DNA of 64,000 nucleotides. It comes from Nitrococcus mobilis Nb-231. Its GTDB lineage: Bacteria > Pseudomonadota > Gammaproteobacteria > Nitrococcales > Nitrococcaceae. The notes beneath the pieces were generated by a model. It made no database searches, was not told the origin of the DNA, and was given only the letters and a program-made list of their open reading frames with translations. This document shows, piece after piece, positions 32,946-53,681 of the stretch (within the stretch, counting starts at the first letter, position 1; the number at the start of each line of letters is the position of its first letter). The stretch lies in assembly GCF_000153205.1 (NCBI RefSeq), contig NZ_CH672427.1, forward strand, positions 2,148,541 through 2,212,540, written 5' to 3'. A program made the translations under genes and the position numbers.

Positions 32946-33668
32946 TCACTGGCTAACCTGTAGGCACACGCATTGATTCCCAGCGCCCTCCCGCTTCAAT
33001 TCCAGATGTGGACTCTTCGACGCGACGTATCCAAGCGGCTGGTCGAGCACGAATGGATAGATCACAGCCAAAGACGCCAGCGACGGAACCGACACTGCTT
33101 TGCCGATGTAACGTAATGCCGCCTCGATCAGCCACGCCACCATCTGCGCATCGCCAACCACGATCGACTCTAGCCGCACGAGGCGTTTACCTTTCTCGAC
33201 GCGTTCGATCGCCCCCCAGCTAGTCTGCGACTGCAGCACCATGTTGGTCATCCGGTAGGTGCCTTCTCGCTCGCCGTAGGTCTCGCTCATTCGACGATGG
33301 ACCTCCGCAGAAGCGCAGTCACCTTGTAGCGCCGAAAGGCGCCCCACGAGCTCTGACACTTTCCCGAAGAACGGATAGGTCGCAATGGCCATCCCCCAGG
33401 TCAGCGCAGAGACAGCCACTCTCGGGTCGGCTTTGAAAATCCCGGTACCCCGGTCTGCGAAATCGACGAGTTCAGGCCGTGGATCCAGCCATAGCCGATT
33501 CAACACGGTTCGTGTCTTCTTGCGCGCCGCCACACCCAGGCCAGCCGCGTCCAGCAAGTAATTCAGCTCATCGAGCGAACCGAGTTCAGCACGCACTCTG
33601 AGTGCAGCAGCCGCCCACTCGAGCGGTATGAACCGATCAAAGCCAATTTGCGGTGCTGACGGCGCCAT
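32946..33668 (-). CDS. brxA: BREX protein BrxA (by position and size)
   Basis: About 240 residues, mainly helical, starting MAPSAPQIGFDRFIPL (ATG 33668; a TTG at 33677 would overlap pglZ's stop). AAALRVRAELGSLDELNYLL and AARKKTRTVLNRLWL give the impression of the helical DNA-binding BrxA/DUF1819 group, but similarity by eye is weak. The call rests on its place directly after pglZ at the end of a type 3 BREX operon, where brxA is found. BrxA binds DNA in characterised systems. It converges with paaX, with 57 bp between stops. Confidence 0.6.
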   Translation of the reverse strand: MAPSAPQIGFDRFIPLEWAAAALRVRAELGSLDELNYLLDAAGLGVAARKKTRTVLNRLWLDPRPELVDFADRGTGIFKADPRVAVSALTWGMAIATYPFFGKVSELVGRLSALQGDCASAEVHRRMSETYGEREGTYRMTNMVLQSQTSWGAIERVEKGKRLVRLESIVVGDAQMVAWLIEAALRYIGKAVSVPSLASLAVIYPFVLDQPLGYVASKSPHLELKREGAGNQCVCLQVSQ

Positions 33669-33673
33669 GCGAT

Positions 33674-35670: not shown

Positions 35671-38493
35671 TCAGGCGCCCTCCGGGTGACCCACGCGAAG
35701 CAACAACACCGCGTCGAGATCCGGCGTGCAGACTTCCGCATCCGCTAGCGACGCCATACGGGCCTCGTGTTCAGCTTCGAGCCTCCTGCGTCGGTGCTCT
35801 CTGACCGCGGGCAATCCGATGCGGCCTATCGCCTGATAGCGCGACTCGAAAGCATACCGCGTCCGCTCGCGTTCCTCGGCGAGCCAAGTACGGTGCTCTT
35901 CCAGCAGATCCGCAAAAAGCCGCTCCCCTTGCGCCTTGGCCGCAGCCAGCGATGCTTCGAAGCTGCTTGAAGCGTTCTCCACCTCGACGTCCGGCGCGAG
36001 CGACACCGACTCCGTCAACAGCAAATCCCAGATCCGCTTGGCGGTCGGCACAAAGGTGCGGCCGTCTTCGGTAACGAAGATGGGTAAGAATCGTCGCCGG
36101 CTGAAATTCTCGGAGACGTGGGACGCGCTCAGGCTGATTTCCCACAGTGACCACACCCCTCGCACCGTATCGGGCAAGCCTGTGACCGCGGCTACAGCCA
36201 ACGGCTGTCCAGCGACGTGGCGCGGCAGCTCACTGATCACTGCGCGTGCGCGTGGGTCCTCGAGTGTGATCCACTCCATTTCTGGGTTCTGCTCCGCGGT
36301 GCGCGCGTCGAAGCAGACACAGGGTGACTCGCTGCCGTCGACCCACTTCACGCGCCATGCGTCGCCAACTCTCTCAGCTGCGCCACCGCGCGATGGCAAT
36401 CCAGCGGTGATGGCACGCTCCAGCCAATATTGCGCCGGATGGTCGCGCCACTTACGGGCATCATCCACTTCAAGCGTATGCTCCTCCGCCAGCAGGTCAG
36501 CATCCTGGCGATTCGCCGCTACCCTCTGTCGTACCTGGTCGATGACCGCATCGCATTCCTTGTCGATTGAAGCCGGGTCTTGCAGTCCATGCACGAACAG
36601 CTCGTCGAAGATCGGTTCTACCTCTGCCGAGTCCATCACATCGGCCGCCTTATCGACGCCGAACTCTTGTGCAATGACGGAGAGCTTCTCCCCCAACACC
36701 TCGCGCACCCGGTGTTCGACCGTGTCTTCCAGCACGAAGTTTATGGCTCGTACGACATGCGGCTGGCCGATTCGGTCCACGCGGCCAATGCGCTGCTCTA
36801 GCCGCATCGGGTTCCACGGCATATCAAAGTTGACGATGACATGACAGAACTGCAGATTCAGGCCCTCGCCGCCTGCGTCCGTCGAGATAAGCACTCGTGC
36901 GTCTCGCGAGAAGACCTGCTGTGCACGCGTGCGCGCGTCCAAGTCCATTCCACCGTTGAGCAACGCTATAGAAAAGCCCCGGCTTTCCAGGAACTCCGCC
37001 AGCATGGCCTGTGTGGGCACAAACTCGGTGAAGATCAGCACCTTGAGCTGTGGGTCGTTCTCTTCCTGCTGGAGTTTGTAGATCAGCTCGAGCAGGGTCT
37101 CCGCCTTGGCATCTGTTCCTTGGTGTTCCGTCTCGATAGCAAGGTCGAGCAACAGCCCGACCTCTGCCTTCTCGCGCTCCCAGCCACTACCCTGGATCAC
37201 CACGTCGAGCTGCGCTTGGCCGTCAAGTTCGGTCCACTCGTCCAACTCGGGCCTATCAACGAGCTGCGTCTGCGCCTGCGGGGTCTCCAGCAGAGCCCTG
37301 CGCTTCTCCAGGGTCGTGCGGATGGCAGCCGTACTAGACGTCACCAGCCGCTGCATCAGGATCATCAGAAATCCGATATGTCGCTGCTTGGCCGCCATTG
37401 CCTGGTTGTAACCATGACGCACGTAGTCGGTCACAGCCTCGTACAGTCTTTGCTGGGCGGCATGGCGCTCCTGCCACGCCACCGCCTGCAGGCGCGTCGT
37501 CCGTGGCTTGAACAGGGGCTGTCCCTCGGCATCAATGGCAGCACGCTTTTCCGTACGGATTACGAACGGCCGCACCCGGTCACGGTTGATGCTGCTCTCA
37601 TCCGGAAAGGTTTCCCGGTCCAGCAACTGCATCAGCCGCATGAACTGGTCGGTCTTGCCCTGGTGAGGGGTAGCGGACAGCAACAGCAGATATGGCGACG
37701 CCTCGGCCAACGCAGCGCCCAGCTTGTAGCGGGCGACCTGATCAGTGCTACCGCCAAGCCGATGCGATTCGTCGATGATCACGAGATCCCAAGAGGCGGA
37801 TATCAGGTCTTCGAAGCGTTCGCGGTTGTAGGTGGCCAGCTGCTCCACGCTCCACCCGCGCCGACCATCAATCGGCTTCACCGAGTCCAGCGAACAGATC
37901 ACCTGATCATGCATACGCCAGAGGTTTTCGTCCCCCTGGGTACCGTTGTCACGCCACTGACGGAAGGCAGCCAGTTCAGATGGTTCGATGAAACGAAAGT
38001 GCTCACCGAAGTGAAGGCGCATCTCCGCCTGCCATTGGCGTACGAGTCCCTTCGGTGCCACCACCAGCACCCGCTGCGCCATGCCACGAAGCTTCAATTC
38101 GCGCAGAATCAGACCGGCCTCGATAGTCTTTCCCAGCCCGACCTCGTCTGCCAGCAGGTAGCGGATGCGGTCGCGGCTCATGGCACGATTCAGGGCATAG
38201 AGCTGATGCGGCAGCGGCACCACGCTCGACTGGATCGGTGCCAGTAGCAGGTTGTCCTCGATCGCGTCGAGTAGTTTTGCCGCTGCCGCCGTGTGCAGAA
38301 TCTGCTCCACGGTCGGGCGCACACAGGAGAGGTCGCCAAGATCCTGGTCTCGGGCGCGCACCAGCGCATCCTTGGCCGGTAGCCAGACGCGGTAGGCAGT
38401 CTCACCCCAAACGTCTTGGCGATCGACTACCCGGCAGGGTGATCCCTGTCGGGCGTGCCAGCACCAGTCGCCGATGGCGAAGCCCTCGCTCAT
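35671..38493 (-). CDS. brxHII: SNF2-family helicase BrxHII
   Basis: A 940-residue superfamily 2 (SNF2-type) ATPase. Motif I is LLADEVGLGKTIEAGLILREL (about 113-133 by length), motif II VIIDESHRLGG, and motif III LLLSATPHQGKTDQF. The C-terminal lobe has LISTDAGGEGLNLQFCHVI and RLEQRIGRVDRIGQ. A long C-terminal region follows. BrxHII replaces other helicases in type 3 BREX. The ATG at 38493 overlaps the stop of the decayed winged-helix frame as ATGA. Confidence 0.88.
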   Translation of the reverse strand: MSEGFAIGDWCWHARQGSPCRVVDRQDVWGETAYRVWLPAKDALVRARDQDLGDLSCVRPTVEQILHTAAAAKLLDAIEDNLLLAPIQSSVVPLPHQLYALNRAMSRDRIRYLLADEVGLGKTIEAGLILRELKLRGMAQRVLVVAPKGLVRQWQAEMRLHFGEHFRFIEPSELAAFRQWRDNGTQGDENLWRMHDQVICSLDSVKPIDGRRGWSVEQLATYNRERFEDLISASWDLVIIDESHRLGGSTDQVARYKLGAALAEASPYLLLLSATPHQGKTDQFMRLMQLLDRETFPDESSINRDRVRPFVIRTEKRAAIDAEGQPLFKPRTTRLQAVAWQERHAAQQRLYEAVTDYVRHGYNQAMAAKQRHIGFLMILMQRLVTSSTAAIRTTLEKRRALLETPQAQTQLVDRPELDEWTELDGQAQLDVVIQGSGWEREKAEVGLLLDLAIETEHQGTDAKAETLLELIYKLQQEENDPQLKVLIFTEFVPTQAMLAEFLESRGFSIALLNGGMDLDARTRAQQVFSRDARVLISTDAGGEGLNLQFCHVIVNFDMPWNPMRLEQRIGRVDRIGQPHVVRAINFVLEDTVEHRVREVLGEKLSVIAQEFGVDKAADVMDSAEVEPIFDELFVHGLQDPASIDKECDAVIDQVRQRVAANRQDADLLAEEHTLEVDDARKWRDHPAQYWLERAITAGLPSRGGAAERVGDAWRVKWVDGSESPCVCFDARTAEQNPEMEWITLEDPRARAVISELPRHVAGQPLAVAAVTGLPDTVRGVWSLWEISLSASHVSENFSRRRFLPIFVTEDGRTFVPTAKRIWDLLLTESVSLAPDVEVENASSSFEASLAAAKAQGERLFADLLEEHRTWLAEERERTRYAFESRYQAIGRIGLPAVREHRRRRLEAEHEARMASLADAEVCTPDLDAVLLLRVGHPEGA

Positions 38494-38815
38494 GCGCCCT
38501 CCTGCTTAAGCGACGCGCGCCCCAACTCAGGCAAGCGGCACCTCTGCTTGCTGCTCTTCGGCTTGTCGGGAATCGTCATCTCCAGCGCGCCATCTCCCCG
38601 GACACCTTCACCAGCAGCGCGAGGCCTTGGGGGGAGACTTGCGGGGTCACTTGGGGGATCACTTGCGGGGTCACATGAAGGGTAACTTGCGGGGTGGCTT
38701 GCCCGGCCGCCTGGGTGAATCGCTCCCCCAGGGCAACCGGAACCTCGAACAGGGTCTCGCCGACCGGCTGGAGCAATTGCTGCCGGATCAGATCCTCGGC
38801 GACTTTTGGTGTCAT
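38490..38815 (-). pseudogene. Winged-helix C-terminal fragment, deleted and frameshifted
   Basis: The region is bounded by an ATG overlapping the DUF4276 stop (38815) and a TGA overlapping the brxHII start (38490), so it once was a coupled gene, but 326 bp cannot be read in one frame. The first 79 codons (MTPKVAEDLIRQQLLQPVG, then a VTPQV repeat, ending VSGEMARWR) stop early. The other frame continues ALEMTIPDKPKSSKQRCRL. TPQV repeats, a GEM motif and MTIPDKPKSSKQ together are the typical C-terminal winged helix of Fic and Schlafen/AAA_4-type ATP-binding proteins. Compared with that pattern about 30 residues between GEM and MTIPDKP are missing. Confidence 0.6.
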
Positions 38816-39474
38816 ACAGCACCTTTTGCCGCAAGACAGCGCAGTCCATCGCGCAGCTTGGTGAAGCTGGGTGAGACATTTCGTTCTGGATCAAGCAAAG
38901 GGCCAATTTCTTGCGCCCACTCGTGCTTAATCTGACCCGGCAGTGGCCATCCGGCCTTCTTGACTGCAGCAGAGCCTCCGGAATACACTGCGTCGGCAAG
39001 CAGCTCCCAAGTGTTGCAAACGCTGTCCTGTACATATCTATTCAGTACATCGCGCTTGGCATTAGGATAGGCTTGTTCCAGGGCCTGTCTGTCCCCCAGA
39101 TACCAGGCTTCCACTTCCTCGATGGCCAACCGGAAAAGTGTGTTCGGCAACGGATTGCATCCAGCAGCCAGCGCTTTCAACTCTGCAAGAAATAGCGTGC
39201 AATCCCGACAGTCGGAATCCAGTACCACTACGACAGCATCGATGCCGGGTGTCCTGCCATAGCCCTGCAACAGCCGTGGCAGTTGATCCAACAGAATGCG
39301 TTTTCCCGGATCGGCTTTTCCTCTCAGGTTTCTCGGGATGCGTCCTATTCCCTTGTACGCATGGGTACGCCAAGTGTGCGGATCACCCCGGTCGCCCAGT
39401 ATTTTCGGCAGCACGGCTTCCAGCAGCTTTTCCCCAGAACTGTCCTCCACCAATATCTCGATATGCATGCTCAT
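38812..39474 (-). CDS. DUF4276 TOPRIM-like protein, partner of the AAA ATPase
   Basis: A 220-residue protein starting MSMHIEILVEDSSGEKLL. An N-terminal strand with Glu (ILVEDSSGE) and a later strand VVVVLDSDCRDC (DxD) are the acidic positions of a TOPRIM fold, as proposed for DUF4276. IEEVEAWYLGD is a further typical block. In defence islands such proteins are paired with ABC-type AAA ATPases; the AriA-AriB (PARIS) and OLD pairs are related in design, with the TOPRIM part acting as nuclease effector. The start overlaps the ATPase stop as ATGA. Its nuclease role here is inference. Confidence 0.75.
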   Translation of the reverse strand: MSMHIEILVEDSSGEKLLEAVLPKILGDRGDPHTWRTHAYKGIGRIPRNLRGKADPGKRILLDQLPRLLQGYGRTPGIDAVVVVLDSDCRDCTLFLAELKALAAGCNPLPNTLFRLAIEEVEAWYLGDRQALEQAYPNAKRDVLNRYVQDSVCNTWELLADAVYSGGSAAVKKAGWPLPGQIKHEWAQEIGPLLDPERNVSPSFTKLRDGLRCLAAKGAV

Positions 39475-40700
39475 CTCGCATCGAGATAGTCGGCATACCA
39501 CAGACCGCCCAGCGGCAGGCCTTCAGCCACCATGTTCTTGACGATTTCAATATCGGACGCACGCTGGATGCGTGAATAGCCATCATCTCCCTTGCTGAGG
39601 ATCCAGACTTCCTCCGGTGCCAGAGCATCGACAAAATACGGTTGATGGGTGGTCACGAATATTTGTGGTGCTCCTTTTCTCCCGGTAGCATGCGCCCGGA
39701 ACTCCTGAGCAAGGGATTCCAGTAGCTTGTGGTACAACCCATTTTCCGGCTCCTCAATGCAGATAAAGGGCGGCGGGTCAGGGTCTTCCAGCAACAGCAG
39801 GTAGCAAAACACCTTCAAGGTGCCATCCGACACCTGCTGGGCAAAGAACGGATCGGAAAAAGCCCCATCATTGAATCGCAGCAAGACCCGCTTATCGTCC
39901 GTCACCTTGGTGCCGATACTTTTGATGCCAGGAATCTTGCTGGCGATGCGGTTCAAAATGGACTGGAAGCGGGACTTGTGCTCACGCTCCATGAATTGCA
40001 CCACGTTGCCGATGTTGTCGCCATGCATGTTCAGATGCCGCTGCGGGCCAGCACTGGGCAGGCTGCGCGCCGCATCTGGATAGAAATAGGAGAGATACCA
40101 AGCCTTGAGGAAATTGCGAAACTTGCTGATGCGCGGATGTTCTCTCAGTGTCCCCAAAGTGGCAATGCCCAACTCACGGGAGTCCGTTAGTTCCACCGAG
40201 CTGCTGGTGCGGTCTTCCTCCTCTGTACCTTCCACAGCGTCCTCACCCGCCCAGACTGTTCCCTTGCCATATTCCAACCGAAGAAATGGAAACGGCCGGC
40301 CATATCTTTGCCCTTTACGCCGCTGCCTCAGTGCCTCTGAAAGTACGAAAGGCCGGCCGCTGTTATCGAGATCAATGGCAAGTTCATAGGTGATGGGGCG
40401 CTCATTCGGCGCTTCACGGTAATAAATCTCAAAGCTTATCGGCTCATCGACATTTTTAGATCGCAGCCGCTCAAAACCACCGCGCTGCTTCATGTCGCAG
40501 GCGGCCTCCACGTCGGCCGACAGACAATCCGCTACAAAACCGAAGGCGTCGAACAAAGAACTCTTGCCCACGCCATTCTTGCCGATCACCACAGTGAATG
40601 GTGTGAGTGGCTCGCCGCTTTGCTGCCCGGATAGCTTGCCTAAAGTTACATCGCGCAGCGCGCGATAGTTTTGCACGCGAAAGCCTTCGATAGTGGCCAT
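39471..40700 (-). CDS. AAA (ABC-type, AAA_21/AAA_15) ATPase of a two-gene defence module
   Basis: A 409-residue overcoming-lysogenisation-defect/SMC-like ATPase. MATIEGFRVQNYRALRDVTL is the usual opening of the family. Walker A is VVIGKNGVGKSSLFD (about 37-51), the signature region is QQVSDGTLKVFCYLLLL, Walker B PFICIEEPENGLY, and the switch TTHQPYFVDAL. It starts immediately after the pglXI stop (TAA-ATG) and overlaps the DUF4276 gene by 4 bp. In PARIS-type systems the ATPase senses phage proteins and controls its TOPRIM partner; whether this pair works the same way is unknown. Confidence 0.82.
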   Translation of the reverse strand: MATIEGFRVQNYRALRDVTLGKLSGQQSGEPLTPFTVVIGKNGVGKSSLFDAFGFVADCLSADVEAACDMKQRGGFERLRSKNVDEPISFEIYYREAPNERPITYELAIDLDNSGRPFVLSEALRQRRKGQRYGRPFPFLRLEYGKGTVWAGEDAVEGTEEEDRTSSSVELTDSRELGIATLGTLREHPRISKFRNFLKAWYLSYFYPDAARSLPSAGPQRHLNMHGDNIGNVVQFMEREHKSRFQSILNRIASKIPGIKSIGTKVTDDKRVLLRFNDGAFSDPFFAQQVSDGTLKVFCYLLLLEDPDPPPFICIEEPENGLYHKLLESLAQEFRAHATGRKGAPQIFVTTHQPYFVDALAPEEVWILSKGDDGYSRIQRASDIEIVKNMVAEGLPLGGLWYADYLDAR

Positions 40701-43466
40701 TTACGGCTCCTCCGTGCGCGTCAGCGCCTGGTCGTACCAGAGGAGCAGCTTCTCGTCTTCCTGTAGTGCCGCTTCAGGGATCTTCTGGGCTACCTTGATG
40801 ATGGTCTGGTAGTCCTTATTACCCCAGGCCGCCTTGAACCCCGCACGCAGCGCTTCCAGCCTGAACTCCTTGAGTCGGCGACCCGTCGCGGCCCGGTAGC
40901 TTTCGAATTCCTTCAACAGCACCTTCTCGCGTTTCTTTTCGAGATCCTGCGCCTTATTCGGGTCGGGGACATACCAGCGATCCTTGGCCTTGGCGACCAA
41001 GCGCGGATCACTCTTTTCGAGACCGCGCAGGTCCTTGTGGTTGGTGGAGAGGTAGCTGTGAATCTGGCTTGGCACATCACCCGCGCCGTCGTATCGAATG
41101 AAGTTATCCTCGAGCAGCTGTGAGAGCTCAGGCTTGCTCTCATGTTTCTTCCAACCGGCGCCAAGTTGAGTGATGAACTCAGGATGCAGCCCCTGATACG
41201 TCGAAGGGCGTTTTCTCAGGAAATCCGTCAGCCAATCGATGGCGCTGCGCTCGTCGGACACGAACAGCTCCATCTGCGGTGCCTGTGCCATCTGAGCCCG
41301 CTTCTTGTCGTACTCGGCGACCTGTTCCGGCAGGAACACCATGCCGTCACGCTCGGGAAACCGGCTCCGCACCCCACTCAGGAATTCGTCGCTGGACAAG
41401 GGCACGGGCGCGTCATGGCGCACGAACCAGGCTACCAGCCGGTCGTAGATGCGCCGAGGGTCACGCTCGACGATGAGTTCCATCTCCCCGTTCCTGGTTT
41501 TGGTCACCGACAGGTTCCTGAGATGGGTTTGTACGAAGTCCCACGCGGATTCAGGCGTAGCGCCTCGCTGGGCAAGGCGCTGCTCCAGGCCGCCATTGGG
41601 TTTGTAGGCTGAGATCACCAGATCCTGCTTCACTGCGGTGGTGGAGGTCACTTGCCGGTAGCTGCCCTGCAGCTTGTCCAGCGCCGTCACTTCGGCGACC
41701 ACGAAACCGGCCTGCTGCAAGGCTACCTGGATGGCGTTCCACACCGCCGCCTTGCTATTGGAGAACACCACCGTCATCCAACGCCCGGGCTTGAGTACGC
41801 GGTGGTACTCGGCGAAGCAGCGTTGCATCAGGTGCTGGTACTCGGGCAGTGCCTTCTTCTTAAAGCGGTCGATGATGGCTTCGGGTTGGGCATCGGTCGT
41901 CACTCCGTGCCACGACTCGACCAGGAAGTTCAGGTCAGCGTAGTAGATGTTCTCGCCAAACGGCGGGTCGGTGAAGACGTAATCGATAGAAGCATCAGGC
42001 AGTGGCAGTTGGGCGGCTGCTCCGGTGTTGATACCAGCGAATCCGAATTGGGATCGATACCCGTGGAAGGCTTTTTCTAGTCGGCTCAGCTTTCCATCGA
42101 GGATGTACCAGGGGCTACATTCCGAATGCTGCGACGCGATGTAATATACGCCACTCAGGTACTGATTGACCTGCGAGAAGTGTGTAGGCGTGTACCGTGC
42201 AAGTACCGACATACCCCAGATAGCTTGTTCAACAAAGAACAACAGGAAAGCCCGAGTCCGAGCACCAGGGTATGCGTTGGCCTTCTCCCACAGCTTGCCC
42301 ATGGCCTGCGCGGCACGTGGCAGAAAAAAGTGGTGAATGTGTGTGACTCCCGCGTAGTCCATGCGAGCCCGCTCATGAGTCATGTGCATCGGCGGGATTT
42401 CGATGGTGGGCACTTGAAACGGGAGCGGCAATGACTCAATGCGCTGGATCACAGCCAAGTCATCGTGGGTCGGCTTCTTTTCGTAGCGCGTCTTGCCGTC
42501 GGTGTATGAGATCAGCGTCGCCGCCCGTTTGGGCACCTGTATCGTATTGCCTGTACTCGGATCGAGCTTTGCTGTGTATAGGCGGTCGAGCCGAGATTTG
42601 ATCAGCTCGGCGCCGCAGTGTGGACAAGGAAACGACTCCTTGACTCGCTTGGACTTCTCATCAAGTGCCTCCTCGGTGAAGTTCACCTCACCTGCACACT
42701 CCGGGCAACTGTAGAGCTGGCTCCAAACGGTGTACCCGATACGCCCCTTGGTCTTGCCGTCGGTGTGCAGGGTTTCATACATCCAGCCGACATCCTGCTC
42801 GACCGACTTGAGCAGTTGCTTGCCTGCCTGCGCGAAGGCATCGACGTCGAACGGCAGGTTGTAGTTGGCTGCAATGAAGGTGGCCACCGGCGACAGGTCG
42901 TTGAGCACCACTCGCCGCGCACCCCATTGCGGCGCCGGCCGACCTTCCTTCTTCCGCGCCAGCTCGACCTCGTGTCGATACTTGGCTGGCGCCGTGCCGC
43001 ACCACTGAGCGGCTACACCCGTCATGCCAGAGCCCGCAAACCCGTCGAGCACGATGTCGCCCGGCTTCGTGTAGTGCAGGATGGACGGCACGATGGCCAG
43101 ATGCGGCACCTTGGTGTGGTAAGAGTGCGCCTTGTAGATCGGATCGGTCTTGCCCACCGACACGTCGATCGCCAATGGCTCGCGCCGATAAGATTCGGCC
43201 GGGTCATAAGGCTTCCCATACTGCTGAACGAAATCGGCCAACCAGGGATTCGGGCACGCGGTGTAGTACGGCGGATCGGACATGGCCAGAATGGCCTCGT
43301 CCGTCCCCTGCGGAAATCCTTCCTGCTTGCGGAATGCCGGGTCTTTGAGTTTTTCGGCCAGCAGTTTCAAGTAGTGCTTGCGACGCGCTTGGTCGCTTGG
43401 GAATGTCTGCCCAAGACATTCCACCGAGCCGGAGATCTGCTTGCCTGCTTCAAAAAGGGATGTCAT
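40701..43466 (-). CDS. pglXI: BREX adenine DNA methyltransferase PglXI
   Basis: About 921 residues, a large beta-type DNA methyltransferase. AMSDPPYYTACPNPWL carries the first DPPY; GDIVLDGFAGSGMTGVAAQ is the AdoMet motif. A zinc-ribbon pair (CPECAGEV ... CPHCGAEL) is followed by a second DPPF in YVFTDPPFGENIYYADLNF. In BREX the methyltransferase marks host DNA at an adenine in a non-palindromic site. The start at 43466 (MTSLFEAGKQISGS) lies inside the end of herA (17-bp overlap) and has GGGGAA about 8 nt upstream. Longer starts to 43643 would run deep into herA and look non-coding. Confidence 0.88.
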   Translation of the reverse strand: MTSLFEAGKQISGSVECLGQTFPSDQARRKHYLKLLAEKLKDPAFRKQEGFPQGTDEAILAMSDPPYYTACPNPWLADFVQQYGKPYDPAESYRREPLAIDVSVGKTDPIYKAHSYHTKVPHLAIVPSILHYTKPGDIVLDGFAGSGMTGVAAQWCGTAPAKYRHEVELARKKEGRPAPQWGARRVVLNDLSPVATFIAANYNLPFDVDAFAQAGKQLLKSVEQDVGWMYETLHTDGKTKGRIGYTVWSQLYSCPECAGEVNFTEEALDEKSKRVKESFPCPHCGAELIKSRLDRLYTAKLDPSTGNTIQVPKRAATLISYTDGKTRYEKKPTHDDLAVIQRIESLPLPFQVPTIEIPPMHMTHERARMDYAGVTHIHHFFLPRAAQAMGKLWEKANAYPGARTRAFLLFFVEQAIWGMSVLARYTPTHFSQVNQYLSGVYYIASQHSECSPWYILDGKLSRLEKAFHGYRSQFGFAGINTGAAAQLPLPDASIDYVFTDPPFGENIYYADLNFLVESWHGVTTDAQPEAIIDRFKKKALPEYQHLMQRCFAEYHRVLKPGRWMTVVFSNSKAAVWNAIQVALQQAGFVVAEVTALDKLQGSYRQVTSTTAVKQDLVISAYKPNGGLEQRLAQRGATPESAWDFVQTHLRNLSVTKTRNGEMELIVERDPRRIYDRLVAWFVRHDAPVPLSSDEFLSGVRSRFPERDGMVFLPEQVAEYDKKRAQMAQAPQMELFVSDERSAIDWLTDFLRKRPSTYQGLHPEFITQLGAGWKKHESKPELSQLLEDNFIRYDGAGDVPSQIHSYLSTNHKDLRGLEKSDPRLVAKAKDRWYVPDPNKAQDLEKKREKVLLKEFESYRAATGRRLKEFRLEALRAGFKAAWGNKDYQTIIKVAQKIPEAALQEDEKLLLWYDQALTRTEEP

Positions 43467-45570
43467 CGTCAAATTCCCCGGCATTACCGACTGCTTGGTT
43501 GTTTGCGTTTTGTTGTTCGGGCTGCGTCTGCTGCCAATCTGTGGCAATAGCAGCCCAATCCACCTCACGCTGAGTCTGGCCAGACCACACGGCCCAGAAA
43601 TCGGGGTCATCCGATTTCGGCCGATGGAGTTCCGGCAAGGCATTGATCTGCACGAGCACTGGCAGCTCGGAGGCCCAGCCCAACAAAATGGCGTTGCGCG
43701 ACGGCAGGGAGGGCAGATCGCGCAGCAGGCCGCGCAAATTATCAGGTACGAGCTTGTGCACCAGCTCCTGATCGCGATCGTTGCTGATGCGATGGAGCAG
43801 ATAGCTGTTGCATTGGGACAGCACCGTGGGCGACAGCTCGCTCGGACGCTGAGACGACAGCACCAGCCCTAGACCGAACTTGCGGCCCTCGCGGGCGATC
43901 TTCTCGAAGACCTGGCAGCAGATGGCGGCGGAATTCTGATTCTCCGTGTCGTCCTTATAGCGTTTGATGAAGGTATGCGCTTCTTCCATTACCAACACGG
44001 TGGGTAAAGTCTTGCCGCGGCTGAGCTTGCGGTAGCGCTGCAAGGCTTCCAGCGTCATGCGGGCAATGACCGCAGTGATGATATGGACGACCTCGGCTGG
44101 CACCAACGAAAGGTCGATGACAGTGACTGTGCCGTTGGAGGCTTGATTGTCTCCGATGTACTTGCTCAGCCAGCCGTATAGGGATACCTCTTTAGTACCA
44201 CCAGTGATGGTCTTCATGCGACTATCCGAAAGAATTGTTCGGATTCGCATGAGCATGGTTTCGACGTACTCGGAAACGTTCAACAGTTCAGCATTGGCCT
44301 CGACGCTGCGCAGGAGTTGATCGCCGGTGAATGGGCGTGGCACGTCGGCATCGATAGGGAGAATATCCACATCGCTACCACCGAAGGCAGCATGAGCCGA
44401 CTTCACTAGGCTTAGAAACTCATCGATCTCTGCTTTAGTGAAGTCATAAGTTGGATACTGACCACCACGTGCGCTTGCGAACGCCGTAATCTTATCTTTC
44501 ACCGCCTTCAGCGCGGAAACTTCTTCCGCGCTGAACGAGGCGTCCTCTGCAAGCCCTTCTTGCCACTTCTTGATCTTCTCGAAGAAGTTCTTTGGATGAG
44601 GAAAGTTGGCCCAAGGCCTGCCGGCATTCCGTTCGATCTGAATTACACTCACCACGGTTCGCAGGAAACGCCGCATCTCATGGCTTGGCGTGGCTGAAGC
44701 ATCTACCGCGCCATCGCGAACCGAGCGAAGCGCCTGAATCAACGTCGGACGCTGCGTCCTGGCACTCGCCTGAGTGAATGCGCTCCATTCGGCGCTATTC
44801 CAGAACCACAGGGGCACCTGGAGCTGCTCGATACCTTTGGCGGGCTCAACCGCGAACACCCGCACGTTGCTCATATCCCGGAAGGTGTTGGCGTATTCTC
44901 CATTGGGATCGAGCACGATGAAGCGGGCATTGGGGTCAGAGCCGCCGCGCGCCTTCTGCGCCTCATCCATTGACCAGCGGATCAGTCCCGCCACCGAGCA
45001 AGATTTGCCACTGCCCGTGTTGCCCAGCACAGCCAGATGGCGGCCGAAGAGACGGTCCGGGTCGATCCGCACCTCCGCGTTGGCGGCCAGCGGACTGATG
45101 CCGATCTTGACGCGGCGGTTCTTGCCGGACTCGACGATGGCGCGCAGTTGGCTCTGCGTCGGAAGCAGTACCGGATCGCCGACCGTGGGATACGCCTCTA
45201 CGCCACGCCGAAACTCATAGCGCTCCTTGTCCCCATCCAGGCCTTCGTAGATCAGGCACCCCAAGGGATTGAGACTCATCTTGCGCAGTGGATAGGGTAA
45301 ATCCACCAGGCCAAAGTCCTGCATACCCTTGCGCTTCGGGTACTGCGAGCGCTCGACGGTGATCCACTCCACCTGCGCCACGAGATGGCCCTGGTCGCTG
45401 GGCACCAGCGCATAGCCATTGATGCGAGGAAACGGACGCGGTGTTCCAGTATTCAGCGCGACGGCATCCGGTGCTTCGATGTCCAGCAGCACCTTGATCT
45501 CGTCCGGCGAGACGAAATCAATCTTGCCGATGCGCAAGGAATCGGCATAGGCTATCGGCGACACGCTCAT
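43450..45570 (-). CDS. herA: HerA-type ATPase of a SIR2-HerA module
   Basis: A 706-residue HerA/FtsK-superfamily motor. The N-terminal HAS-barrel-like region (about 1-140) precedes Walker A LGNTGSGKSCSVAGLI (about 182-197). Walker B is PTVLVMEEAHTFIKRY (about 535), followed by GLVLSSQRPSELSPTVLSQC. HerA hexamers translocate DNA; with SIR2 they form a complex that degrades NAD+ during phage attack. The ATG overlaps the sir2 stop (ATGA) with GGAGG just upstream, so the pair is co-translated. Confidence 0.85.
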   Translation of the reverse strand: MSVSPIAYADSLRIGKIDFVSPDEIKVLLDIEAPDAVALNTGTPRPFPRINGYALVPSDQGHLVAQVEWITVERSQYPKRKGMQDFGLVDLPYPLRKMSLNPLGCLIYEGLDGDKERYEFRRGVEAYPTVGDPVLLPTQSQLRAIVESGKNRRVKIGISPLAANAEVRIDPDRLFGRHLAVLGNTGSGKSCSVAGLIRWSMDEAQKARGGSDPNARFIVLDPNGEYANTFRDMSNVRVFAVEPAKGIEQLQVPLWFWNSAEWSAFTQASARTQRPTLIQALRSVRDGAVDASATPSHEMRRFLRTVVSVIQIERNAGRPWANFPHPKNFFEKIKKWQEGLAEDASFSAEEVSALKAVKDKITAFASARGGQYPTYDFTKAEIDEFLSLVKSAHAAFGGSDVDILPIDADVPRPFTGDQLLRSVEANAELLNVSEYVETMLMRIRTILSDSRMKTITGGTKEVSLYGWLSKYIGDNQASNGTVTVIDLSLVPAEVVHIITAVIARMTLEALQRYRKLSRGKTLPTVLVMEEAHTFIKRYKDDTENQNSAAICCQVFEKIAREGRKFGLGLVLSSQRPSELSPTVLSQCNSYLLHRISNDRDQELVHKLVPDNLRGLLRDLPSLPSRNAILLGWASELPVLVQINALPELHRPKSDDPDFWAVWSGQTQREVDWAAIATDWQQTQPEQQNANNQAVGNAGEFDDDIPF

Positions 45571-46979
45571 GTTTTGGCCTCCGCGTCCGGGGAACCGTCA
45601 CCCTGAGTATTGTCTTGGGGTGGGGATTCCGCGCCATAACGTTGCTTGAGCAACTCGCTCATGCGGAACGTGGCCCTGTCGATGGCAGCCTTGGGCAGGA
45701 AGTATTCGGTCAGTGTTGTCAGATCGGCCAACTGCGGCCCGACCAACAGGCTGACTTGGGACTTCCGCTCCTCCGCAAGCGGCAAGATTCGGCCAAGGTT
45801 GTCATCCCTCGAAATCACTACCAGATGCGCGGATGGAATGGTGAGCATGTCGCGGATCACGCGATTGATATGTTCGTCGCCAAAGCTGTAGCCGTAGGTA
45901 ACCAGCGTGCTGTTGGGACGGCACACAACGGCGGCCAGATCGCGGAACAACTCCACATAGGGATAGGCCAGCGTTTCCCTATCCTTAGCGGCGTTGGGGT
46001 AAATCATCAGTTGAAGGGGGCTGGCTCTCGTCAAACCGGGTGCCTCCAAATAGGGAGCAACCTCGACTACGCCAAACGGCAGGCCGATACGACGGATTTC
46101 TTTGCCCGCTTGCACCCAGTCCACCGAACCATGCAGCTTGGTGAAGCGGGCGACGCCTTCCAGATAGCGCGGCTCGCCGCGAATGCCTGGCGGGTTATAG
46201 TGCATATCCAAATCGAGCCGGGACGAGCGGAAGATCGGCATTAAATTGCCGAGGAAGCGGTCTAGCAGATAAAGACCCGCCAGTTCGGCTCCTGCTTCAA
46301 TCAACCGATCGTAGTTGGTCGTGAAGATGTTCAGCCGATCCCGGGTTCCGGTGCGGCTGGCAAAACTCATCAGGAACGTGACCAGGCCAGTGAAGGCCTT
46401 TTCTCGCTGCTGTTCCAAGGCGGTGGCAATGCCAGCTTCGCCTTTAAGAATGGATTTGGCAAAGTTCCGAAGTGTCGTCGACAGGTCTTCTCGCAGTGCA
46501 TCAGCCTGCTTGCGGACACCGAAGATCTCCAGTCCCCGCAATAGCTCGTTGGCTATCCGAATATGGTCTTCGATATTGCTCTGATCACGTCCCGCTGCCT
46601 TTGCGGATGCGTGGGCGGCTGCATGTATCTTTTCTTTGAAACGTCCCTCGGAAACACTACCCGACATGCCGGATGCAAGTTTTCCGGCCGCTATCTCATG
46701 CACCGCGTAGGTCAACCCTGAACCGACCAAGAGCGAGAGATGCTCAGACTGAAACAGAGATGTCAGCCAGGGTTCGATGCGACTGCGCAGTTCCTTGAGA
46801 CCGAATTCCTGCGCACTGACCCACTGTACATCGACCCCTTCGCAGAGCTTGAACTTTCCTTCTTCGACTCCCTCGAAGCGAACGGTCTGATGGTCGTCCC
46901 TGACCTTCAGCAGGTTGATCGTCTTCGGACCTGAGCCAGCTTGGATCGAGTCGCCTGTTTGTTGTTCATCCGTTGGCAT
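45567..46979 (-). CDS. sir2: SIR2-like NAD+ hydrolase of a SIR2-HerA module
   Basis: A 470-residue SIR2_2-type protein. LSLLVGSGLTYAVHE is the nucleotide-binding Gly motif (about residue 82-96). IFTTNYDRLIEAG is the conserved TTNYD. FTKLHGSVDW holds the probable catalytic His, and VTYGYSFGDEHINRVI is the C-terminal GxSFxDxHI signature. Such proteins hydrolyse NAD+ when activated, stopping growth of infected cells. The start is ATG 46979 with AGGAGG 6 nt upstream, the strongest ribosome-binding site in the operon; the 57-bp gap to brxC is the operon's largest, so the module may also have its own translation or promoter control. Confidence 0.87.
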   Translation of the reverse strand: MPTDEQQTGDSIQAGSGPKTINLLKVRDDHQTVRFEGVEEGKFKLCEGVDVQWVSAQEFGLKELRSRIEPWLTSLFQSEHLSLLVGSGLTYAVHEIAAGKLASGMSGSVSEGRFKEKIHAAAHASAKAAGRDQSNIEDHIRIANELLRGLEIFGVRKQADALREDLSTTLRNFAKSILKGEAGIATALEQQREKAFTGLVTFLMSFASRTGTRDRLNIFTTNYDRLIEAGAELAGLYLLDRFLGNLMPIFRSSRLDLDMHYNPPGIRGEPRYLEGVARFTKLHGSVDWVQAGKEIRRIGLPFGVVEVAPYLEAPGLTRASPLQLMIYPNAAKDRETLAYPYVELFRDLAAVVCRPNSTLVTYGYSFGDEHINRVIRDMLTIPSAHLVVISRDDNLGRILPLAEERKSQVSLLVGPQLADLTTLTEYFLPKAAIDRATFRMSELLKQRYGAESPPQDNTQGDGSPDAEAKT

Positions 46980-47036
46980 GGTCACCTCCTGGGGTAGTCT
47001 TTAGCTGCAAGCTCACGTCATGAGTGATTGTTGAAT

Positions 47037-50000
47037 TCACTCCACGACAAACCGCAGCTTGCTCGCATCCTTGCCTTTGCAGCGCTCATTCAGAAACGAC
47101 TCAAATCGCTTGCGCAGGTCATCGGGCGTCGCGGGCGATCCGCCAGCGAGCAGCGCCTTCTTGATTTCATCGTCGGTGACGAGGATCTTCTCGAGGCCGG
47201 AGAGTGCCTCCTGCACGGCGGCGACGAACTCAGGCGTAACAGGGTCAGGCAACGCCTTCGAGACTAAAAAGCCCTTGATCAGGTCGTGTTGCACAGCTTT
47301 CAGTAGCTCGAAGTTGGCCTGGATGATCGGGTCGTCGAGGTTGTCGAGCAGCGCCTGCTGCCAACCCTGCTGTAGTCTGTCCAGTTCGTCGTCCAGAGTC
47401 TTGAGCACATTGGCTGCGGGTAGGAAATCACCCTGCTCGTTCGCTGGGCGGAAGCTGCAGTGCGGACAGACGGGGCTGGCGGCCAGCTCGGACTCGATCA
47501 AGGAGGCACAGCTCTTCAGCTTGTCGAGCTTGTCTTCGAACGCCGTAAGCTGGCCGGGGTGCATGAGAGAGATGCCAGCGAGTGCGCGCAGGGTCACAAT
47601 GCGCGGATCTTTGCGCATCGCGGACTTGGTCTTGTCCTCCGCTACGCCGAGCCGCGCTTTGCTGTGTTGGGCCACGTAGGCGGTGATGTAGTCTTTCTTC
47701 AGTGCCGCCAGACGCTGGCGGTATTCGGCGGCGTGCTGCGCACTGCGGTCATCGGCGAGCTTGTCGAGGATCTCCTTGCGCGCCGCCTGCGCCTGCTGGA
47801 CCCAAGTGTGGTCAGCGACGAGCACCATCTCGGCCTGTGAAAGATAGGCTGCTATGGCTCCCAACTCGGCCACCAAGTCACGGAGCTTCTCGACGGACGA
47901 CAGGACCTCAAGGTTCTTCTTCTGAGCGTCGATGTCCTCTTGGGTGATGCGCAGGTTTTTGAGCTTGCCAACGGTGTTATAAGGCGAGAGCCCTTCGAGG
48001 AAACCCTTGAGCGCTTCGAGCCGCGTGCGCCAGTCACGCAGCTCTTCCTCACGCAGCAAGGGCTGGCCCCAGAAGCTGAGCCGGGTCTGCAGATCAGTCC
48101 CGACCGCCAGCACGCGGTTGACGAGCTTCGCTACAGCATCCAGAAGTTCCTTGACCGGCTCCTCCTTGCCTTGGGTCGCCATCTGGGCAAGGCCAGACGG
48201 CAGGCCCAGCAGCTCAAACAGCGAGCGCAGGACGGCGACATTGATCTCCTTTGGTGCCTCGACGTGCTTGAACTGTTTGAGCTCGTCCAGCCCCCGCTCG
48301 ACCAGCAGCGAGATCTTGCCGGAATCGATCTTGTCGCCGGTGATGGCCAGGACGATATCGCCCGAGTACACCAGGCTGCCCAACACGGTGACGAGCAAGT
48401 CCGGTTCCAAACGGAATCGAACCGGGGCGAAATACTCGACGTCGGTCGGTCCACTTACCAGTTCACCGCGGTTGAGCACCTGGCCCTGGCCTTTTGCCTT
48501 CAGTCGGCTTAACACTTCCTGGGCATACTTCGATCGCGTAGGCTCGATGCGGTCGCCGTCCAGCATCTCCAGCGCATCCAGGATGGCGACCGCGTCCTTG
48601 GTGCGCGTACCGCCCGCCAGTGCCTTGAGCGCGTTGCCGATGAGCTGCTTGCGGTTCGATTCGGTGACCAGTACCGAAAAGGTCGGATACTCCGGAGCCA
48701 GGTCCGTGAAGTGGGTACCCAGCGCCAAGCCAGACGTCACATTGACGATGTCTCGGAAGTTGGCGCGCTCGTCTGAACCCAGTCGGAGCTTGTCGCGCAT
48801 CGACACCCCCTTGGCCCATTCCTGCAGGGTCTTGGTCTTACCCTGATGGGTCACCTCGAAGGCGGTCATCTGCTTGTCCTGGAGCCACTTGCTCATGCCA
48901 CGTAGGGCATCCTTGGCCTTGTCCAGGTAGACGGCCTTGGCCGCCCCGCTGGCTGTCGAGGCCAGCTCCTGGGCCGCGGCATAGAAGGCCAGATGGCGTT
49001 TGATGGCGTCGTCCAGCCCTTTCAGGCGGAAGAACACTTCGTCGGCCTTCGCTTCATCGCGAAAGCGTGGCGGCTCGAACGGCTGGATGAAGTAAATATA
49101 GAAGTCGCGCTCCGGCTGGGCGGTCGGTCGATCATTGGGCGCCCCGAGGAACAGGTAGCCGTTTCGCTCGACACCATGGTCTTGCCATTCAACCTGGTAT
49201 TGCCAGATCTTGTAACCGGTTACATAGGCATGCTCATCGGTGCGTTCCATGAGCTGCATAAGCGCGCTGTAGTAGGCGCGGTCGAGTGCATCGTCAGACA
49301 GCGCTTCGGCGCGCTTTTCGACCTGGGCGTCGTAGTCGACGTCTTTCTTGAGATCGAGGTAGTACTGCTCGGTGTCGGGCGCCTTGGAGATGAACTGGCC
49401 ATTGACCGTCTTGACGATCTCACGCAATGTCGTCTGCACTGCTGTAAGCAGGTCGTCGGAGGGCTCGCCGCCCAAGCCCTCGATGCCGGGCTGGTACAGG
49501 CAGAGCGTATCCCGCAGTTCCTCGGCGGTTGGACCGACCGGCACGTAGATATCGCCACCGGTGGTCAACCGGTGCACGGACAGCCCCTTAATCACGCGCA
49601 TGGCCATCGCTTTGTATGGTGGGCGGGTGAAGGCTTTCTGAACGCGCTCGCCAAGCACTTCCGAGACCTTCAACACCGGGCCAATGTTTGGGTCCGAGCG
49701 CAGCACGGAGTTCGAGGTGACCGTATCCCAGAACCTGTCGAACCCGATCAGACCGGGGCGATCGGTCGGAACCTCGTCATCCAGAAGAGCCTGAATCTGG
49801 TCGCGCAGGGTGACCAATGCGCCGCGCTTCTCGGTGAAGATCAGCTGTTCGAAGGTGCCGATGTAGTCCGGGTGAACCGGAAACAGGCGGACGTACTCGT
49901 CCATCCGCTCATTCATGTTGCTGTAGAACTTGGCAAAGGGCGTAAGGTAGGTGCGGATTTTGTGCTGCTGGTCGGCTGACTTTTTGAGCAGACGCTCCGC

Positions 50001-50762
50001 CACCACAAAGCTCACATCTTGGCGGGCCAGCAGCACTTGCGTAAAGCGCTCGTTCACCCGACGCAGGCTGTCCGCCACATGCTGGAAGCGGCTGCTGTCA
50101 AAGATGGCTTCCTGCACTCCCGCCACGAACCGGAAGCGCAGGTGCTTCGTTACTTCACCCAGTTCGCGCAGGAACGATAAGTCCAGCACCAAGTCGTGGT
50201 CCTTTCGGGAGCGCAAAAACTCCAAGAATTCATCCACAACGAGGAGTACGCCTTGGTTGGGGTGGACCTCATCGAAGGTTGCCATCATCTCCTCGAAGGC
50301 GGCTTTGTTATTGACCACCCTGTCGCCCGGCGGGAACGCGTAGCTGACGCCCTGCTTCTCTAAGAAGACTTCGAGTTCTTGCGTAATGATGTCGCGCAAC
50401 GACATCTGGCTGGAGATTTCGATGCGGTGCACCTTGAACTTGCCGGCTATGGAGCTTGCCGCCTCGGCGACTTTGGGGTGGCGGAGCATCGGCACATAGG
50501 CGGCGTCTTCGGCGATCAGTGACAGCGCGGACATCAAGTGCGATTTACCGGTGCCGTAGTTGCCGACCACGAGCACGCCTTTGTGATCCACCGATTCATC
50601 GAACGATATCTGCGCGATCATCTGCTTGGCGATTCGATCGGCCATGTCATCGGAGATCACGTAAGTGGCGACGAGCTTCTTCGCCTCATCGGGCCGGTTG
50701 GCGTCGAGCAGCTGAATGACCGACTCGATTGGCTCGAATTGAATGAGATCCCCGTAGCGCAT
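47037..50762 (-). CDS. brxC: BREX P-loop protein BrxC (PglY-like)
   Basis: A 1,241-residue AAA+ protein. It starts MRYGDLIQFEPIESVIQLLD and has Walker A LVVGNYGTGKSHLMSAL (about 63-79) and Walker B GVLLVVDEFLEFL (about 172-184). A long helical body carries a C-terminal zinc-binding-like CPHCSF and coiled-coil stretches. Size and order match BrxC of type 3 BREX (DUF6079 type), the large ATPase of the complex. It follows brxF after 12 bp. Confidence 0.88.
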   Translation of the reverse strand: MRYGDLIQFEPIESVIQLLDANRPDEAKKLVATYVISDDMADRIAKQMIAQISFDESVDHKGVLVVGNYGTGKSHLMSALSLIAEDAAYVPMLRHPKVAEAASSIAGKFKVHRIEISSQMSLRDIITQELEVFLEKQGVSYAFPPGDRVVNNKAAFEEMMATFDEVHPNQGVLLVVDEFLEFLRSRKDHDLVLDLSFLRELGEVTKHLRFRFVAGVQEAIFDSSRFQHVADSLRRVNERFTQVLLARQDVSFVVAERLLKKSADQQHKIRTYLTPFAKFYSNMNERMDEYVRLFPVHPDYIGTFEQLIFTEKRGALVTLRDQIQALLDDEVPTDRPGLIGFDRFWDTVTSNSVLRSDPNIGPVLKVSEVLGERVQKAFTRPPYKAMAMRVIKGLSVHRLTTGGDIYVPVGPTAEELRDTLCLYQPGIEGLGGEPSDDLLTAVQTTLREIVKTVNGQFISKAPDTEQYYLDLKKDVDYDAQVEKRAEALSDDALDRAYYSALMQLMERTDEHAYVTGYKIWQYQVEWQDHGVERNGYLFLGAPNDRPTAQPERDFYIYFIQPFEPPRFRDEAKADEVFFRLKGLDDAIKRHLAFYAAAQELASTASGAAKAVYLDKAKDALRGMSKWLQDKQMTAFEVTHQGKTKTLQEWAKGVSMRDKLRLGSDERANFRDIVNVTSGLALGTHFTDLAPEYPTFSVLVTESNRKQLIGNALKALAGGTRTKDAVAILDALEMLDGDRIEPTRSKYAQEVLSRLKAKGQGQVLNRGELVSGPTDVEYFAPVRFRLEPDLLVTVLGSLVYSGDIVLAITGDKIDSGKISLLVERGLDELKQFKHVEAPKEINVAVLRSLFELLGLPSGLAQMATQGKEEPVKELLDAVAKLVNRVLAVGTDLQTRLSFWGQPLLREEELRDWRTRLEALKGFLEGLSPYNTVGKLKNLRITQEDIDAQKKNLEVLSSVEKLRDLVAELGAIAAYLSQAEMVLVADHTWVQQAQAARKEILDKLADDRSAQHAAEYRQRLAALKKDYITAYVAQHSKARLGVAEDKTKSAMRKDPRIVTLRALAGISLMHPGQLTAFEDKLDKLKSCASLIESELAASPVCPHCSFRPANEQGDFLPAANVLKTLDDELDRLQQGWQQALLDNLDDPIIQANFELLKAVQHDLIKGFLVSKALPDPVTPEFVAAVQEALSGLEKILVTDDEIKKALLAGGSPATPDDLRKRFESFLNERCKGKDASKLRFVVE

Positions 50763-50774
50763 GCGTTTTCCCTT

Positions 50775-51242
50775 TTACCCTGCCGTTTCAATTTCGAACG
50801 GGATCAGGCCGTCCAGTCCGTAGTCCTGATATTCCGGATGCCCGATCTCCGCGTAGCTCAGCCGGCCTTCGCGGAGCTGGCCGGGCCATGCCGCCACGAC
50901 TCGACGCGTATGGGCGTGGCGCTTGAGTAAATCCAGCGGGTCGAGCCTGAGCGACTGATCGAACAGGAGCTCAATGTTGTCGAGCAGGAGCAGGTCGCCG
51001 CTCGCGTACTCATCGGCCAGTTCGCGCATCGCGACATTGGCATGGAGCGGCCGCTGTCGCTGTGGCAGCGCCGCGAGGCGTTTTCCCAGTTCGGCTCCGA
51101 CATTCATTACCTTCGCAGCTCGCCTATTGGCCAGCTCGCCCAAGAGCTTGGTCTTGCCGCACCCATCGGGCCCGACAAGCAGGATCAACTTGCTGTGCAG
51201 TGCCGCGATTTCATCTACCAGGCGATCCAGTCTTGTGAGCAT
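50775..51242 (-). CDS. brxF: BREX type 3 P-loop protein BrxF
   Basis: A 155-residue small ATPase specific to type 3 BREX. LILLVGPDGCGKTKLLGEL is Walker A (about 20-38) and DLLLLDNIELLFD is Walker B. SYAEIGHPEYQDYGLDGLI near the end is typical. ATG 51242 with GAGGGG 7 nt upstream is preferred to a GTG at 51257 that would overlap the HTH stop. First of the core BREX genes. Confidence 0.85.
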   Translation of the reverse strand: MLTRLDRLVDEIAALHSKLILLVGPDGCGKTKLLGELANRRAAKVMNVGAELGKRLAALPQRQRPLHANVAMRELADEYASGDLLLLDNIELLFDQSLRLDPLDLLKRHAHTRRVVAAWPGQLREGRLSYAEIGHPEYQDYGLDGLIPFEIETAG

Positions 51243-51253
51243 GAGGCAGCCCC

Positions 51254-51481
51254 TCACCCATTTTCACCACGAGGCTCGCCGTGAACACCGTTGCCCTGGG
51301 CTTCCGCCGTCTGCCGCTTGATCCACTGGTCGATTTCCCGGCGCTGGAATCGCCACGTTCCTCCGACTTTGAATGCCGGAATTTTCTTTGCCGCCGCCAA
51401 ACGATAGACCGTGCGCTTACCCACTTTGAGGTAGGCCGCCACCTCCTCGAGAGTGAATATCTCACCAGAGTCGTCTTTCAT
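51254..51481 (-). CDS. Small HTH (excisionase-type) DNA-binding protein
   Basis: A 75-residue protein starting MKDDSGEIFTLEEVAAYLKVG. FTLEEVAAYLKVGKRTVYRLA then KIPAFKVGGTWRFQRREIDQWI is the HTH_17/MerR-like excisionase fold. GAGGAC sits 5 nt before the ATG. Being the first gene of the defence operon, it may regulate it; an old excision function is the alternative. The brxF ribosome-binding site overlaps its stop codon. Confidence 0.75.
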   Translation of the reverse strand: MKDDSGEIFTLEEVAAYLKVGKRTVYRLAAAKKIPAFKVGGTWRFQRREIDQWIKRQTAEAQGNGVHGEPRGENG

Positions 51482-52189: not shown

Positions 52190-52361
52190 ATCGGAAGCGC
52201 TTTCCGGTTACCGGAGTAACTTTGCCAGCGCACGTCCAAACACCCACTTAATGACACACCACATTGACGCAACACTAATTGCTTGTATCATTTTTAGAGA
52301 AGAGTCATCCGCTGTAATCCCACGGATCGCGGGTCCATCGCTCATGACCGGGAAGACCCTG

Positions 52362-53354: not shown

Positions 53355-53383
53355 AAGATAACGGTCATTCGAGGTATAGCACC

Positions 53384-53665: not shown

Positions 53666-53681
53666 CACGCCGGACCGCGCC

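What the first reader, a model, noticed from the sequence alone, without database searches (positions are those of the whole stretch)
43450..46979. SIR2-HerA pair wired into BREX by translational coupling
sir2 and herA overlap as ATGA, and pglXI starts 17 bp inside herA. SIR2-HerA is known as a free-standing anti-phage system; here its second gene is needed for efficient translation of the BREX methyltransferase. If translation of herA failed, methylation would fall too. This may link the dose of the suicide module to host-protective methylation.
Basis: partly seen in the sequence, partly recalled or inferred. Interest (0 to 1): 0.7.

Follow-up and report, generated by a model that had tools for sequence, protein, structure and literature searches.

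The report
SIR2-HerA cargo inside BREX operon
A known suicide-type phage-defence pair (SIR2-HerA) sits as exchangeable cargo inside a type 3 BREX defence operon; [quoted passage not shown]

Summary
sir2 and herA overlap by 4 nt, herA and pglXI by 17 nt, all inside a complete type 3 BREX operon. The regulatory reading is weak. SIR2-HerA recurs in the brxC-pglXI slot (11 of 81 loci), but herA directly abuts pglXI in only four of these. Whatever gene fills the slot (HerA, a 219-226-aa protein, a 444-aa protein, a Schlafen/AlbA_2 protein) usually overlaps pglXI by 1-17 nt, so nothing ties methylation to SIR2-HerA in particular. pglXI keeps a ribosome-binding site of ordinary strength.

(1) The overlap encodes HerA's last residues, EFDDDIPF. 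This is the SSB C-terminal tip; host SSB ends DFDDDIPF. Such tails occur in 9 of 81 HerAs against 0 of 731 background ORFs, and usually follow the host's dialect (IPF or LPF). PglXI residue 3 is Asp in 17 of 18 other genomes but Ser in the three where this tail reads through. (2) A ~175-residue helical domain of HerA is swapped wholesale between loci 92-98% identical elsewhere, as recognition domains are. Both functions are inferred. I found neither reported in the open-access literature searched. New variant of a known kind.

The parts
51254..51481 (-). small helix-turn-helix (excisionase-like) gene at the head of the operon
   Evidence: read from the sequence; ORF; not family-searched
50775..51257 (-). 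brxF
   Evidence: NF033453 BREX_3_BrxF 1e-56; PADLOC BrxF
47037..50762 (-). brxC (DUF6079)
   Evidence: PDLC02482 E=0; PF19557
45567..46979 (-). sir2, NADase; own strong RBS (CAGGAGGTGACC-ATG) 57 nt after brxC
   Evidence: PDLC04079 5e-159; PF13289; TTNYD, KLHGS and YGYSFGDEHIN motifs intact; SD -11.6 kcal/mol
45567..45570 (-). ATGA: 4-nt sir2/herA overlap
   Evidence: conserved in 61 of 69 resolvable relatives
43450..45570 (-). herA, hexameric ATPase/translocase partner of SIR2
   Evidence: PDLC04098 5e-267; PF01935; model matches solved HerA and SIR2/HerA structures, Z up to 24.5
44221..44748 (-). swapped helical domain of HerA (about aa 275-450)
   Evidence: wholesale allele exchange between otherwise 92-98% identical loci; helical in models
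43450..43476 (-). codons for the SSB-tip-like HerA C-terminus EFDDDIPF plus stop
43450..43466 (-). 17-nt herA/pglXI overlap
   Evidence: identical length in L041 and L042
43475..43479 (-). SD-like GGGGA for pglXI, inside herA
   Evidence: sequence; -5.7 kcal/mol anti-SD duplex
40701..43466 (-). pglXI (BrxXI methyltransferase), 921 aa, starts MTSLF
   Evidence: PDLC02541 E=0
39471..40700 (-). OLD-family ATPase, second cargo slot
   Evidence: PDLC04182 HEC-01A 8e-193; PF13304
38812..39474 (-). DUF4276 partner (HEC-01B), 4-nt overlap with the ATPase gene
   Evidence: PDLC04205 2e-93
38502..38806 (-). frameshifted scar of a Schlafen/AlbA_2-type cargo gene
   Evidence: tblastn to the L042 slot-B gene, 56% and 63% identity in two frames, E=7e-24
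35671..38493 (-). brxHII
   Evidence: PDLC02500 E=0
33674..35668 (-). pglZ
   Evidence: NF033449 BREX-3 2e-214
32946..33677 (-). brxA
   Evidence: PDLC02444 4e-66

Best explanation
This is a type 3 BREX operon with two interchangeable cargo slots. Slot A (brxC-pglXI) holds SIR2-HerA, a NAD-depleting backup effector; slot B holds an OLD-ATPase/DUF4276 pair. The 4-nt overlap couples sir2 and herA to each other, as suits a SIR2-HerA complex. The herA/pglXI overlap is the usual outcome of fitting cargo tightly against the pglXI start codon. Its 17-nt length and its conservation are best explained by coding: those bases also encode HerA's SSB-tip-like tail EFDDDIPF, for which PglXI appears to have given up its usual Asp3. 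Inferred working: the tail docks HerA onto the cell's SSB-binding proteins, placing the NADase at replication or repair sites, and the swappable helical domain sets what triggers HerA; SIR2 then depletes NAD+ if BREX fails. Shown: anatomy, recurrence, tail, domain swap. Inferred: docking, triggering, backup role, and any partial herA-to-pglXI translational coupling.
For: Complete BREX-3 gene set. Recurrent sir2-herA-..-pglXI order in ten other genomes (brxC also seen in all but L041, whose contig is too short), with varied cargo in both slots. Slot-A cargo of four kinds overlaps pglXI in 11 of 16 loci. Slot-B scar shows cargo replacement. Tail: 9/81 HerA against 0/731 background ORFs, Fisher p=6e-10; window SSB ends DFDDDIPF; in 8 further genomes HerA tails resemble the host SSB tip, usually with the same IPF or LPF ending; L010 carries the tail with no pglXI nearby. 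PglXI residue 3: Ser in 3/3 with the read-through tail, Asp in 17 of 18 others. Domain swap: L013 vs L047 about 97% nt outside, 36-41% inside; protein pairs 98% vs 21%, while SIR2 and flanking genes stay nearly unchanged.
Against: No experiment. Only 3 of 11 BREX-embedded HerAs carry the tail, so it is not needed for the BREX association. The three tail+BREX loci share a SIR2 clade, so the Ser3 change may be a single event. The Fisher test ignores kinship. HerA models are of middling confidence (mean pLDDT 63 and 54). What the swapped domain binds is unknown.
Confidence: 0.6

Rival explanations
1. One reading: translation of herA is needed for efficient PglXI synthesis, so the amount of NADase and of protective methylation are deliberately locked together.
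For: 17-nt overlap kept in three genomes; pglXI SD weaker than those of sir2 and herA; no internal promoter-like site; -8 to +10 spacings support reinitiation in general (PMC10666635).
Against: herA is adjacent to pglXI in only 4 of 11 embedded loci; other cargo overlaps pglXI equally; pglXI follows brxC where the slot is empty; pglXI keeps an SD of ordinary strength; -17 lies outside the -8 to +10 class treated as coupled in that study.
Confidence: 0.15
2. Neutral packing: the overlap has no function at all. Cargo recombined in front of pglXI simply runs into the first out-of-frame stop in the conserved pglXI start (ATGACTGA.., ..TTTTTGA), and the SSB-like tail in this locus is an accident.
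For: Overlaps cluster at 4, 8 and 17 nt, set by stops in the pglXI start.
Against: SSB-like tails occur in HerAs with no pglXI downstream and follow the host dialect; the last 30 nt differ at one base between the window and L042 although the genes diverge; PglXI Asp3 is missing exactly where the tail reads through.
Confidence: 0.2
3. The swapped HerA segment is a fast-evolving structural part without recognition role, exchanged neutrally by recombination.
For: All HerAs have a helical bundle here; both alleles are predicted helical.
Against: Identity is bimodal, about 20% or at least 53%, among loci at least 90% alike outside; the same backbone carries either allele with unchanged SIR2 and neighbours. 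Four discrete types suggest diversifying selection.
Confidence: 0.25

Closest known systems
SIR2-HerA (Nezha) anti-phage system
   Same: Two adjacent genes, SIR2 NADase motifs intact, HerA translocase fold; solved SIR2/HerA entries 8wof, 8j4u and 8uae are among the structural matches
   Different: Divergent subfamily: SIR2 and HerA score far below the NCBIfam equivalog cut-offs (119 vs 500 bits; 219 vs 850 bits); embedded in BREX; HerA bears an SSB-like tail
Type 3 BREX (brxF-brxC-pglXI-brxHII-pglZ-brxA)
   Same: All six core genes in the usual order
   Different: Two cargo insertions, SIR2-HerA and OLD-ATPase/DUF4276
Backup effectors embedded in BREX (Rakesh and Krishnan 2026, PMC12839542)
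   Same: Accessory effectors placed between BREX core genes, including OLD-ABC pairs and Schlafen RNases
   Different: That survey lists nucleases; its main text has no mention of SIR2 or sirtuin. SIR2-HerA adds a NADase
SSB C-terminal tip (SSB-Ct, DFDDDIPF) docking to SSB-interacting proteins
   Same: HerA ends EFDDDIPF; the C-terminal Pro-Phe and acidic residues are the features SSB partners need (PMC10164576)
   Different: Carried by a defence ATPase, not by an SSB; binding not tested
Target-recognition-domain swapping in restriction-modification specificity subunits (general knowledge)
   Same: Discrete alleles of one domain exchanged within a constant protein
   Different: The domain is HerA's helical bundle/insertion, not a known DNA-sequence reader; function unknown

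Membership tests
Type 3 BREX | BrxF, BrxC, PglXI (BrxXI), BrxHII, PglZ, BrxA in one operon | tested here: met
Type 3 BREX | methylates host DNA and restricts unmodified phage | not testable with these tools
   needs methylome and plaque assays
SIR2-HerA (Nezha) | SIR2-like NADase gene beside a HerA/DUF87 ATPase gene | tested here: met
   -4 overlap
SIR2-HerA (Nezha) | catalytic Asn and His motifs of SIR2; Walker A and B of HerA | tested here: met
   TTNYD, KLHGS; GNTGSGKS and VLVMEEAH invariant or nearly so
SIR2-HerA (Nezha) | meets the NCBIfam equivalog cut-offs for the pair | tested here: not met
   119.5 of 500 and 219 of 850 bits; hence filed as a divergent subfamily that works like the system, not as an equivalog
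SIR2-HerA (Nezha) | 12:6 complex, NAD+ depletion on infection | not testable with these tools
   needs biochemistry
SSB-Ct-type tail | acidic stretch ending in Ile/Leu-Pro-Phe at the very C-terminus | tested here: met
SSB-Ct-type tail | binds SSB-interacting proteins | not tested
   no binding data
Translationally coupled gene pair (termination-reinitiation) | spacing -8 to +10 nt | tested here: not met
   herA/pglXI is -17; sir2/herA at -4 does meet it
Translationally coupled gene pair (termination-reinitiation) | downstream expression falls when upstream translation stops | not testable with these tools
   needs reporter assay

The most novel reading that the evidence does not exclude
HerA of this SIR2-HerA branch is a modular immune receptor: an exchangeable helical domain reads the phage trigger, and, in part of the family, a C-terminal copy of the host's own SSB tip tethers the NADase to SSB-binding replication and repair proteins. 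In BREX the tail is co-encoded with the methyltransferase start, which gave up a conserved residue for it.
Probability: 0.45. Interest if true: 0.82.

Novelty: new variant of a known kind. Interest (0 to 1): 0.6.

Why it matters
What triggers SIR2-HerA systems is not settled in anything I could read. A discrete, naturally swapped domain says where to look, and the natural near-identical pairs (L013/L047, window/L041) are ready-made chimeras. An SSB-tip copy on a defence ATPase would tie abortive defence to the replication fork through a host protein-interaction code. The BREX context shows that NADase effectors, not only nucleases, are carried as cargo inside a methylation-based system.

Tried and rejected
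Longer pglXI start at 43643: rejected by homologue N-termini. Internal promoter or terminator between sir2 and pglXI: no promoter-like site, terminators at background level. Clustering the HerA segment by BLAST with conserved edges included lumped all sequences, so column-wise identity was used instead. Searching plasmids for the junction gave distant SIR2-HerA only; the closest, Xanthomonas L113, shows no BREX genes in its annotated flanks and is cut by an IS. A nucleotide pattern for the tail in viral contigs finds mainly SSB-like and other phage proteins, not HerA. Tail as a BREX-specific feature: rejected (3 of 11 in BREX, 6 of 70 outside). Searches of open papers for an SSB-like tail or domain swapping on defence HerA found nothing on point; subscription papers, including a main SIR2-HerA structure paper, were not held.
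Full report
Observation. On the minus strand the window carries a complete type 3 BREX operon: brxF, brxC, sir2, herA, pglXI, OLD-ATPase, DUF4276, brxHII, pglZ, brxA. sir2 and herA share ATGA (45567-45570) and pglXI starts at 43466, 17 nt inside herA. Homologous PglXI proteins begin at the same place, so the start is right. The island lies between paaX and paaA/paaC-type genes of a phenylacetate locus.

Is it special? One scan for HerA relatives gave 80 loci. The 4-nt sir2/herA overlap is present in 61 of the 69 loci where it can be resolved, in and out of BREX. SIR2-HerA lies in the brxC-pglXI slot in the window and ten others: L011, L012, L013, L031, L033, L041, L042, L047, L048, L067 (L041's contig is too short to show brxC). 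Only the window, L041 and L042 have the 17-nt overlap and L033 an 8-nt one; in the rest other genes lie between herA and pglXI. Type 3 BREX loci gathered by PglXI searches show that the brxC-pglXI gap is a cargo slot holding SIR2-HerA, a 444-aa protein, a 219-226-aa protein, OLD ATPases or Schlafen/AlbA_2 proteins. In 11 of 16 loci with cargo and a defined junction, the last cargo gene overlaps pglXI by 1, 4, 8 or 17 nt. Where the slot is empty, pglXI follows brxC at +7 to +91 nt. A scar of a replaced Schlafen gene remains in the window's second slot.

Coupling. The anti-SD duplex energy for pglXI is -5.7 kcal/mol, usual for pglXI genes; sir2 is -11.6 and herA -9.5. No internal promoter-like site was found in 43300-47200. 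In the reporter study of PMC10666635, spacings of -8 to +10 predict reinitiation and longer overlaps are rare; sir2/herA fits and herA/pglXI does not. Some coupling of pglXI to herA is possible, but a purposeful dose link is not supported.

What the overlap encodes. HerA ends EFDDDIPF. The SSB C-terminal tip is DFDDDIPF (PMC10164576) and the window's own SSB ends DFDDDIPF. Nine of 81 HerAs end in an acidic stretch plus Pro-Phe against none of 731 other long ORFs in the same loci (p=6e-10, kinship not corrected). SSB searched in the eight other tail-bearing genomes resembles the HerA tail: L010 NFDDDIPF in both; L041 and L042 FDDDIPF in both; L046 DDDLPF in SSB and DDDYLPF in HerA; L052 DDELPF and DDDDLPF; L079 DDIPF in both; L084 DDLPF in both; L058 is looser, LPF in SSB and FPF in HerA. 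L010 carries the tail with no pglXI nearby, so the tail does not depend on BREX. In the three BREX loci with the tail, PglXI begins MTSLF; in 17 of 18 other comparable loci residue 3 is Asp and in one Asn. An Asp codon there would end herA early or spoil Ile-Pro-Phe, as in L033, where ATGACTGA stops herA after 8 nt. I infer that the tail is selected and PglXI adapted. A single ancestral event in this SIR2 clade is an alternative for the Ser3 change.

Domain swap. The HerA and SIR2 trees disagree because one HerA segment is exchanged. L013 and L047 are about 97% identical in DNA on both sides but 36-41% inside; the window and L041 are about 92% outside and 36-39% inside. At protein level pairs reach 98% outside and 21% inside aa 285-445; four discrete types hold 57, 8, 8 and 6 of 79 sequences. 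SIR2 and neighbouring genes are nearly unchanged across the swap, so the segment is not matched to an operon partner. Models place it in a helical bundle. In the HerA-DUF4297 complex an insertion in the corresponding helix bundle closes the DNA entry and touches DNA (PMC11291478). A recognition role is the simplest reading; it is inferred.

Known and new. The parts belong to known families (SIR2-HerA/Nezha, type 3 BREX), and embedded backup effectors in BREX are described for nucleases (PMC12839542). SIR2-HerA as BREX-3 cargo, the SSB-tip tail and the domain swap I did not find described in the open papers searched; that is not proof of absence. Verdict: observation confirmed, regulatory reading not supported beyond possibility, with two better leads inside the same coordinates.

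Noticed in passing
window 44221-44748 (HerA aa about 275-450); L013, L047, L067, L041, L042: Wholesale allelic exchange of one HerA helical domain in otherwise near-identical SIR2-HerA loci.
   Followed up: yes
window 43450-43476; L010, L041, L042, L046, L052, L058, L079, L084: SSB-tip-like C-terminal tails on HerA that resemble the host SSB tip.
   Followed up: yes
window 38502-38806: Frameshifted C-terminal scar of a Schlafen/AlbA_2 cargo gene downstream of the OLD-ATPase/DUF4276 pair, showing cargo replacement.
   Followed up: partly
window 51567-52189 (+): ThsB-like TIR gene next to the BREX operon, apparently broken by an early TAG stop at 51669-51671.
   Followed up: no
L012 12131-13492; L013 12131-13474; L031, L047, L048: A 443-453-aa protein with no Pfam match follows herA directly (TAGATG) in several BREX-embedded loci; may be a third SIR2-HerA component.
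   Followed up: partly
window 30555-32888 and 52251-54440: The defence island splits a phenylacetate/homogentisate catabolic region (hgmA, paaX on one side, paaA/paaC-type genes on the other).
   Followed up: no
window 38812-40700: OLD-ATPase/DUF4276 pair (HEC-01 in PADLOC, PARIS-like layout) in the pglXI-brxHII slot; the same pair sits in the same slot in L111.
   Followed up: partly
viral loci L174, L203, L217, L242 and others: Many phage proteins without a match to the host SSB also end in FDDDIPF; some may be other ssDNA-binding proteins using the same tip.
   Followed up: no
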